A stretch of DNA of 64,000 bases from Toxonevra muliebris (lineage: Eukaryota; Arthropoda; Insecta; Diptera; Pallopteridae): the NCBI GenBank assembly GCA_963691655.1, contig OY829326.1:91691235-91755234 (forward strand), in the 5' to 3' direction. The translations under genes and the position numbers were made by a program. This document shows positions 55,345-56,913 of the stretch, one piece after another (positions within the stretch are counted from its first letter, which is position 1; each line of letters opens with the position of its first letter). The notes under the pieces were generated by a model that saw nothing but the letters and a program-made list of their open reading frames with translations, ran no database searches and was not told the origin of the DNA.

Positions 55345-56913
55345 ATGCCTTTACAACACAGTAATGAAAATTTCCTACCACAAGGAAACGTGTGTACAAT
55401 ATGCCGCGAAATTTTTGGTGAAACCGATGACGTGCTTCGCACTTCCTGTTCTCATAAGTTCCACCGGACCTGTCTATTGTCTTGGTTAAAGCGTAACTCG
55501 TCTTGCCCGCAATGCCAAGCACCATGTAGTAGTCGCGAGTTTCAGACTAATATAGGTGCAACAACAAGATCCCGAACAGCTCTTCAAAGTAACAACTTTG
55601 CCAGCGTTAATCCAAATCTAGAGCTTCCACGCTCAGGCATGCACCACGAATTATCTGAAAAGGAAGGTGCTGTTGGGTCACCGATAAATACTGATAATAA
55701 TGTTCAACCAAACAATAGTCGCGAAGAAGATGATCGTATTCGAAACTTGGTTTCTGCGGTTATCTCAGCTAGGCATGCTTCTATCTTCGACAACCTTGAA
55801 CACCGTGTCACGCAGCTGATTGAACAACAATTTGAAAGTAATTTAAATAGATTGTTTAGTCGCTTGAACTTAAACAATGCTCCTCCCGCAGCGAACGTTA
55901 GCAATAATGCTAATACCCCGCCTCAAAATCCAAATAATTCAACTCCAGTTTGGCCCCAAGATATACCATATCCACGCAGTCATTCAAATATAAATAATTT
56001 TACACGCCAAATTGACCAGCTTCGCCTTAGTGATGCTGCCAATGTCCCAAACACTAGTAGAGTTGCTCAGCTAATCGCAAGCTGGAACATTCGATTTGAT
56101 GGTACTTCGCGTCTTTCGGTAGATAACTTTATATACCGCATAGAATCCCAGGTCAGTGACACTTTAAACGGCAACTTTTCTTTATTATGCGAACATGTAC
56201 AAAGCTTATTTAGTAATGAAGCAAAAGACTGGTACTGGCGGTACCGGCGCTCTGTAGAACGCGTCTCTTGGCCATCGCTGTGCCAAGCTTTGCGCACAAA
56301 TTTCCAAGAGCATAAAAGCGATACTGAAATCAAAGAGATGATTCGCGCACGAAAACAGGGCCAAGCAGAATGTTTCGATGAGTATCGTAATGCCATATTA
56401 TTAATTACCGAGTCCTTACAAACTCCACTCCCTGAATCGGAACTGGTGGAGATTTTGCAGCGCAACTTGCGTCCGCGTGTCCGCCAACAACTACTCTACG
56501 TTCCTATAAATTCGTTGGCAGAATTGCGAAGACTATGCTTGAAAGGCGAAACCCTTTTAAACGAGATAGCGAAAACTAATCTTCCTTCAACTGTTGTCAA
56601 TCAAAGACAAATTCCTCGCCGCCAAATAAACGAACTGCAAGACAACGCAGTGTTGGGTGATTTTTCAGAGGGCGAATTTGCTGAAGTTGATGGAATAGAC
56701 AAACGAGTACAAAGTACTAAATTAATTTGCTGGAACTGCCGCGAAGAGGGACACAGATATTTTGACTGTCTGGAAGACAGGTCTGTGTTTTGTTATGGTT
56801 GCGGTATGTCAGGCATTTACAAGCCAAAATGTATGACCTGCAATCCGGGAAACTTGCAAGCGAGCGAGGTTCCAAAACCGACTCCTCGCTACGACCCGAA
56901 AAAGAAGATCTAA
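55345..56913 (+). CDS. gag: Gag with N-terminal RING-H2 finger
   Basis: 522 residues, ATG to TAA, no lesions. Residues 17-57 form a C3H2C3 RING-H2: C17, C20, C35, H37, H40, C43, C54, C57, spacing C-x2-C-x14-C-x1-H-x2-H-x2-C-x10-C-x2-C. Ile19, Trp47 and Pro55 match E2-contact positions of active E3 ligases. Residues about 60-240 are polar and disordered, with a helical stretch near 130-180. The capsid-like retrotransposon Gag domain spans about 240-415 (FDGTSRLSVDNFIYRIESQV, DWYWRYRRSVERVSW, LPESELVEILQRNLRPRVRQ). The nucleocapsid has one canonical knuckle, CWNCREEGHRYFDC, and a second Cys cluster, CYGCGMSGIYKPKC, without the His. Capsid assembly and RNA packaging are expected; a ubiquitin-ligase activity is inference. 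Confidence 0.93.
   Translation: MPLQHSNENFLPQGNVCTICREIFGETDDVLRTSCSHKFHRTCLLSWLKRNSSCPQCQAPCSSREFQTNIGATTRSRTALQSNNFASVNPNLELPRSGMHHELSEKEGAVGSPINTDNNVQPNNSREEDDRIRNLVSAVISARHASIFDNLEHRVTQLIEQQFESNLNRLFSRLNLNNAPPAANVSNNANTPPQNPNNSTPVWPQDIPYPRSHSNINNFTRQIDQLRLSDAANVPNTSRVAQLIASWNIRFDGTSRLSVDNFIYRIESQVSDTLNGNFSLLCEHVQSLFSNEAKDWYWRYRRSVERVSWPSLCQALRTNFQEHKSDTEIKEMIRARKQGQAECFDEYRNAILLITESLQTPLPESELVEILQRNLRPRVRQQLLYVPINSLAELRRLCLKGETLLNEIAKTNLPSTVVNQRQIPRRQINELQDNAVLGDFSEGEFAEVDGIDKRVQSTKLICWNCREEGHRYFDCLEDRSVFCYGCGMSGIYKPKCMTCNPGNLQASEVPKPTPRYDPKKKI
55393..55515 (+). other. RING-H2 domain within Gag
   Basis: Codons for C17 to C57. The eight zinc ligands are all present with textbook cross-brace spacing, and the E2-facing Trp four residues after the sixth ligand is kept. 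Gags of gypsy elements normally start with an unstructured or matrix-like region, so this looks like a captured host module. Confidence 0.9.

What the first reader, a model, noticed from the sequence alone, without database searches (positions are those of the whole stretch)
55345..55530. RING-H2 ubiquitin-ligase finger fused to a retrotransposon Gag
The Gag of an intact gypsy-type element opens with all eight ligands of a C3H2C3 RING in ideal spacing plus the hydrophobic, Trp and Pro positions that contact E2 enzymes. Known gypsy Gags carry capsid and zinc-knuckle domains; I know of no standard family with an N-terminal RING-H2, although I cannot exclude prior description. An E3 carried into the particle could ubiquitinate Gag itself, or target host silencing factors. 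The reading frame is intact, and the finger must have survived enough replication rounds to be under selection.
Basis: partly seen in the sequence, partly recalled or inferred. Interest (0 to 1): 0.88.

Follow-up and report, generated by a model that had tools for sequence, protein, structure and literature searches.

The report
RING-finger Gag of Osvaldo-lineage fly retrotransposon
A young jumping gene in a fly genome carries, at the front of its shell protein, a small zinc domain of the kind that helps attach ubiquitin to proteins; the domain is real and conserved, but it was already reported in this group of jumping genes in 2013, and what it does there is still untested.

Summary
A C3H2C3 RING-H2 finger (Gag residues 17-57; Pfam E 4e-12) opens the intact Gag of a young LTR retrotransposon (LTRs 1984 bp, 99.85% identical, 4-bp target duplication). 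It is no assembly join: two near-identical copies lie on other contigs, 53 of 55 fetched Gag loci of this genome have all eight ligands, and 57 of 90 database homologues match the full pattern. Non-synonymous change in the finger is far below synonymous and not distinguishable from the capsid.

The claim that no such family is known is wrong. LTR length, PBS, target duplication and Gag homology place the element in the Osvaldo lineage of Ty3/Gypsy. Negre & Simpson 2013 (PMC3630058, passages) reported the RING in Calliphora Isis-like Gag and in Osvaldo, and its absence from Isis.

Best mechanism: an Arkadia-like E2-recruiting ligase domain clustered by Gag assembly. No enzymatic step is shown. 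Against it: this copy has Gln at the linchpin, a sister clade lacks the E2-contact Trp in 22 of 22 RINGs, and some relatives lack the finger. New here: breadth, selection, and the Trp/linchpin partition.

The parts
52593..52596 (+). target-site duplication AGCT, left
52597..54580 (+). 5' LTR, 1984 bp, TG...CA
54586..54602 (+). primer-binding site, 5 bases after the LTR; read as complementary to tRNA-Lys
   Evidence: sequence; the tRNA-Lys assignment is recalled, not computed
55345..56913 (+). gag, 522 aa
55393..55515 (+). RING-H2 finger, C17 to C57 of Gag
55717..55863 (+). predicted long helix, Gag 125-173; no heptad signal
56053..56580 (+). capsid region, Gag 237-412; Foldseek best matches dArc capsids
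56728..56769 (+). CCHC zinc knuckle, Gag 462-475 (Pfam 14.3 bits, below its 20.8 cut-off)
56791..56841 (+). second Cys cluster, Gag C483, C486, C496, C499 (no His), conserved in the family
56766..60245 (+). pol open frame, overlapping gag in another frame: protease, RT, RNase H, integrase
60273..60282 (+). polypurine-rich tract before the 3' LTR
60283..62266 (+). 3' LTR, 1984 bp, differs from the 5' LTR at 3 adjacent bases
62267..62270 (+). target-site duplication AGCT, right

Best explanation
A recently inserted, Osvaldo-lineage Ty3/Gypsy LTR retrotransposon whose Gag begins with a lineage-typical RING-H2 finger (shown, except that lineage placement rests on structure and Gag homology). The finger most likely recruits an E2~ubiquitin in the way of Arkadia-type monomeric RINGs (inferred from sequence and predicted structure). 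Because it sits on Gag, capsid assembly would bring many RINGs together, so that ligase activity is coupled to assembly and acts on Gag itself or on host proteins held by Gag (inference). I put the identity at about 0.95, E2 binding or ligase activity for the Trp-bearing clades at about 0.6, and any particular substrate below 0.3; the number given is for the ligase reading.
For: RING family match far above cut-off; nearest PDB sequences are active E3 RINGs such as Arkadia, RNF126 and RNF165; predicted structure superposes on RNF165-UbcH5b~Ub. Window clade A: Trp in 21 of 23 and R/K/Q after the last Cys in 22 of 23 RINGs; clade D: 6 of 6 and 6 of 6. Selection: four subfamily pairs pooled, finger changes 77 of 97 synonymous sites against 90 of 389 non-synonymous; linker non-synonymous 561 of 1415, capsid 373 of 1874; finger below linker (p about 1e-9), not distinguishable from capsid (p 0.17). 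Lineage: PMC3630058 and PMC3286476 passages.
Against: No activity data. Gln58 at the linchpin; in Arkadia both R983A and R983K impaired ubiquitylation (PMC9954413, passages). Trp is absent in clade B (0 of 22) and rare in C (2 of 15). Relatives without the finger exist: Isis (PMC3630058) and P0077-P0079, so the finger is not indispensable to the lineage. One genome copy, L031, has lost a ligand Cys.
Confidence: 0.6

Rival explanations
1. The finger is a zinc-stabilised structural or protein-binding module of Gag (oligomerisation, packaging or host-factor docking) with no ligase activity; resemblance to E3 RINGs is inherited.
For: All eight ligands are kept while E2-contact positions drift: Trp 0 of 22 in clade B, 2 of 15 in C, yet a clade B member (P0036) is still predicted as a RING with pLDDT about 90 and matches RING structures, TRAF6 and RNF125 among them. 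(The rows counted were picked by the full ligand pattern, so ligand retention itself is partly by selection.)
Against: Active RINGs without this Trp are known (TRAF6 appears among the matches; its activity is recalled). Clades A and D keep Trp and linchpin together in 27 of 29, hard to explain without E2 contact.
Confidence: 0.3
2. The ligase acts in trans, to degrade a host silencing or restriction factor.
For: Only analogy with viral RING proteins (recalled). The N-terminal region and linker around the finger evolve faster than the finger.
Against: No substrate, no interaction data; some relatives of the lineage do without the finger.
Confidence: 0.15
3. Chance motif, chimeric assembly join or decaying passenger.
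For: None found beyond single damaged copies (L007, L031).
Against: Two further copies at 100% over residues 1-65 on other contigs; 53 of 55 fetched Gag loci with the full pattern; homologues from several fly species; purifying selection.
Confidence: 0.01

Closest known systems
Cv_Isis-like of Calliphora vicina (Osvaldo lineage; Negre & Simpson 2013, PMC3630058)
   Same: Gag (531 aa) with a RING finger, separate pol, no env, long LTRs (2577/2574 bp), 4-bp TSD (passages). P0044 (C. vicina, 531 aa) is very probably this Gag (inferred from species and length); full pattern present.
   Different: Only 33% identical in Gag to the window; lies in clade C, where the Trp is mostly missing.
Osvaldo and Isis of Drosophila buzzatii
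   Same: Same lineage; PMC3630058 says Osvaldo has the RING finger; PMC3286476 says Osvaldo uses tRNA-Lys.
   Different: Isis lacks the RING and has env (PMC3630058). Neither sequence was compared here.
Osvaldo-like elements of Culex quinquefasciatus (PMC3286476)
   Same: LTRs of about 1-2 kb, tRNA-Lys PBS, mostly 4-bp TSDs (passages).
   Different: The passages seen do not speak of a RING finger.
Arkadia/RNF165 RING-H2 domains
   Same: Ligand spacing class, E2-contact Ile, Trp, Pro; predicted fold.
   Different: Cellular E3s with Arg at the linchpin (Arkadia); here Gln, and the domain is part of a retrotransposon Gag.

Membership tests
Osvaldo lineage of Ty3/Gypsy | LTRs of about 1-2 kb (997-2055 bp in PMC3286476 text) | tested here: met
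   1984 bp each
Osvaldo lineage of Ty3/Gypsy | PBS complementary to tRNA-Lys | tested here: inconclusive
   PBS read at 54586-54602; it fits tRNA-Lys as I recall it, no tRNA gene was compared
Osvaldo lineage of Ty3/Gypsy | 4-bp target-site duplication | tested here: met
   AGCT both sides
Osvaldo lineage of Ty3/Gypsy | pol order PR-RT-RH-IN (Ty3/Gypsy) | tested here: met
   Pfam on three pol pieces
Osvaldo lineage of Ty3/Gypsy | groups with a named Osvaldo-lineage element in a tree | tested here: inconclusive
   Gag capsid tree puts the window and P0044 (C. vicina) inside one 90-row set, SH-aLRT 96, apart from 11 other rows; rooted at the midpoint only. No pol tree with named elements was made; none of the names shown says Osvaldo
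RING-H2 (C3H2C3) domain | eight ligands in C3H2C3 order and spacing | tested here: met
Active RING E3 ligase | E2-contact Ile/Trp/Pro | tested here: met
   I19, W47, P55
Active RING E3 ligase | H-bond donor at linchpin, typically Arg, Lys or Asn (PMC9954413) | tested here: inconclusive
   Gln58 in the window; its near relatives have R, K or Q
Active RING E3 ligase | E2-dependent ubiquitin transfer | not testable with these tools
   needs biochemistry
Env-bearing insect errantivirus | third ORF env | tested here: not met
   pol ends at 60245, 38 bases before the 3' LTR; no further frame of 90 aa or more on the + strand between pol and the 3' LTR

The most novel reading that the evidence does not exclude
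Osvaldo-lineage retrotransposons carry an assembly-gated ubiquitin ligase: capsid formation clusters Gag-borne RINGs and switches on ubiquitylation of Gag or of a host antagonist, and the lineage has split into subclades with a full E2-contact set (A, D) and subclades that rewired E2 binding or gave up catalysis (B, partly C and E), with repeated outright loss.
Probability: 0.2. Interest if true: 0.75.

Novelty: new member of a known kind. Interest (0 to 1): 0.38.

Why it matters
It corrects a novelty claim and shows that a one-sentence remark of 2013 describes a conserved, selected trait of a large retrotransposon lineage in flies. If the finger is a working E3, it would be a ligase built into a retrotransposon capsid protein, testable with a 65-residue domain in vitro; natural subclades with and without the E2-contact Trp and natural RING-less relatives are ready-made comparisons.

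Tried and rejected
Rejected: chance motif or assembly join. Rejected: TRIM-like RING plus coiled coil; helix 125-173 is predicted, but heptad scores are not above shuffles (1430 of 2000 shuffles as high for the window, 1450 of 2000 for the family profile). Softened: 'clade B is catalytically dead'. I first scored only R/K/Q as linchpin (4 of 22 in B), but PMC9954413 also lists Asn, and with it B has 13 of 22 R/K/N (recount); Trp loss (22 of 22) stands. dN/dS between subfamilies: synonymous sites are saturated in most pairs, so raw proportions were used; of the four pooled pairs only L016/L023 gave a finite finger ratio, 0.11. Six close pairs give 9 synonymous over about 142 sites and 8 non-synonymous over about 596 in the finger (my sum; two pairs share L041, three of the six have more non-synonymous than synonymous changes). 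The four pooled pairs were picked by me out of 15 computed; pair L033/L008 has a finger ratio of 0.68 and goes against a uniformly low ratio.

Selection of rows: alignment A1 (46 homologues, chosen from the 57 of 90 with the full RING pattern) fed the structure prediction and the conservation figures (finger 0.45, non-ligand finger 0.32, linker 0.13, capsid 0.50), so ligand invariance there is partly by choice. P0073 was left out of the tree as too short.

Not achieved: a count of capsid-bearing copies without a finger in this genome. The request did not complete eight times, so the rate of finger loss in this genome is unknown. No expression or interaction data were available. Supplementary files and figures of the papers were not seen. 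In PMC12910113 (D. virilis, 2026) only passages were seen: a legend lists 'RING - ring finger domain' among ORF domains of transposons; which family carries it I could not see.

Literature searches behind 'no functional test found': (open-licence library only); one paper held Osvaldo, RING finger and gypsy together.

Full report
What is there. The window holds a complete LTR retrotransposon at 52597-62266 on the + strand: LTRs of 1984 bp, 99.85% identical and differing only at three adjacent bases, AGCT on both flanks, a PBS five bases after the 5' LTR and a purine-rich tract before the 3' LTR. Gag (522 aa) starts at 55345, and a pol frame in another register overlaps its end. Pfam finds zf-RING_2 at Gag 16-58, a borderline Retrotrans_gag at 286-376 and a weak CCHC knuckle in Gag, and protease, reverse transcriptase, RNase H and integrase in three pol pieces. 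Pol ends 38 bases before the 3' LTR; there is no env.

The finger. Its eight ligands are C17, C20, C35, H37, H40, C43, C54 and C57. The E2-contact positions hold I19, W47 and P55; the position after the last Cys holds Gln58. The best solved relatives by sequence are Arkadia, RNF126 and synoviolin RINGs. The AlphaFold2 model has pLDDT around 93-97 there. Foldseek puts the capsid region on dArc capsids and the finger on RNF165 in complex with UbcH5b~Ub (5ulk_C, rmsd 0.7 over 46 columns, E 6.4e-3).

Sibling copies. A search of the window's genome with residues 1-65 gave 89 matches (ordinary host RING genes are among them). Two other loci are identical over these residues; their gag frames differ from the window's, and from each other, by 1 to 3 bases. 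53 of the 89 lie in stop-to-stop frames of 480 codons or more. Of 56 fetched loci, 54 show the full ligand pattern in an open frame. One of the 54 (L047) looks like a host RNF126-type gene (my label), which leaves 53 of 55 Gag loci. The two misses are L007, where the frame is broken inside the finger, and L031, where one ligand Cys is Trp. By eye the Gag loci fall into 12 subfamilies, most of them with near-identical copies.

Relatives elsewhere. 90 proteins match Gag; named sources include Rhagoletis pomonella, Lucilia cuprina, Calliphora vicina, Musca autumnalis, Drosophila gunungcola and Scaptodrosophila lebanonensis. 57 of 90 have the full RING pattern in their first 200 residues. The other 33 include gene calls that begin downstream of the finger (such as P0004 of Rhagoletis, which aligns from Gag residue 128), partial or irregular fingers (P0063, P0071, P0072) and proteins without one. 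On a capsid tree of 101 rows, one set of 90 rows (SH-aLRT 96) holds all 68 RING rows and 22 without the pattern; the 11 rows outside have none, although two of these are short (310-316 aa) and several have long branches. The tree needs 19 changes of the label, many of them probably truncated gene calls. P0077-P0079, next to RING-bearing subfamily L008 (98), look like a real loss; where the N termini align there is ambiguous. The tree is a quick one, rooted at the midpoint, and cannot by itself tell gain from loss.

Selection. In four subfamily pairs of this genome, pooled, the finger has changes at 77 of 97 synonymous and 90 of 389 non-synonymous sites; the linker has 561 of 1415 non-synonymous and the capsid 373 of 1874. 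The finger is thus constrained far more than the linker and not distinguishably from the capsid (p 0.17). Synonymous sites are near saturation, so this shows constraint without a precise ratio. These four pairs are part of 15 computed, and one other, L033/L008, gives 0.68 for the finger.

E2-contact positions split by clade (69 RINGs: 57 homologues and 12 genome subfamilies). Trp: A (window) 21 of 23, D 6 of 6, C 2 of 15, E 1 of 3, B 0 of 22. Residue after the last Cys: A R16 K4 Q2 E1; D R5 K1; C K12 R3; E R1 F2; B N9 G6 K4 H1 D1 S1. A clade B Gag (P0036) is still predicted with a RING fold, with TRAF6, RNF125 and RNF165 among its Foldseek matches. In Arkadia, Arg983 at the linchpin is needed for efficient transfer and Trp972 lies in the E2-binding helix (PMC9954413, passages). 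So the window's finger has E2-binding features but a weaker linchpin residue than its relatives with Arg.

What is known. PMC3630058 (Negre & Simpson 2013; [quoted passage not shown] PMC3286476 (passages) gives LTRs of 997-2055 bp and a tRNA-Lys PBS as features of the lineage. The window element fits (1984 bp; PBS assignment recalled). The RING-Gag fusion is therefore a known trait of this lineage and the window's element a new member. I found no functional test of it in the searches listed under Tried and rejected; the library holds open-licence papers only.

Mechanism. Shown: the domain, its conservation, its constraint, its position on Gag. Inferred: E2 recruitment; raised local RING concentration through capsid assembly; ubiquitylation of Gag or of bound host proteins. 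The main rival is a zinc-stabilised structural module, favoured by drift of the E2-contact positions in clades B and C. The breadth and the clade split are, as far as I could find, the new part, and make the question testable with a 65-residue domain.

Noticed in passing
window 56791-56841 (Gag 483-499): Besides the CCHC knuckle, the family keeps a second Cys cluster C483-x2-C486-x9-C496-x2-C499 without the usual His (C483, C486, C496 invariant and C499 nearly so in the 47 RING-selected rows): perhaps a C4 zinc site rather than a second knuckle.
   Followed up: no
window 55345-55374 (Gag 1-10): A short motif of the type M-x-x-x-[HR]-S-x-[DE]-[ND]-L precedes the finger; 35 of 102 rows match my loose pattern (the window itself, ending in F, does not), among them the RING-less P0077-P0079.
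   Followed up: partly
clade B Gags, e.g. L037, L048 and P0036: A whole clade keeps the zinc ligands but has no E2-contact Trp (0 of 22).
   Followed up: partly
P0044: UniRef names this Calliphora vicina retrotransposon Gag 'E3 ubiquitin-protein ligase', an automatic name that hides its origin.
   Followed up: no
PMC3630058, legend of Additional file 5: A RING finger is also marked in the ORF of a BEL/Pao element, Pao_Cv1, so fingers may have entered LTR elements more than once.
   Followed up: no
window 34587-35252 and 42539-43225: An inverted repeat pair of about 690 bp, 86.7% identical, with a further related piece at 29533-29658.
   Followed up: no
window 913-1247 and 3633-4003: Short tandem arrays, the second with 248 bp repeated exactly.
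   Followed up: no
window 52026-52328, - strand: A 100-aa frame just upstream of the element reads to me like a LINE reverse-transcriptase tail; Pfam gave no match at E up to 1.
   Followed up: partly
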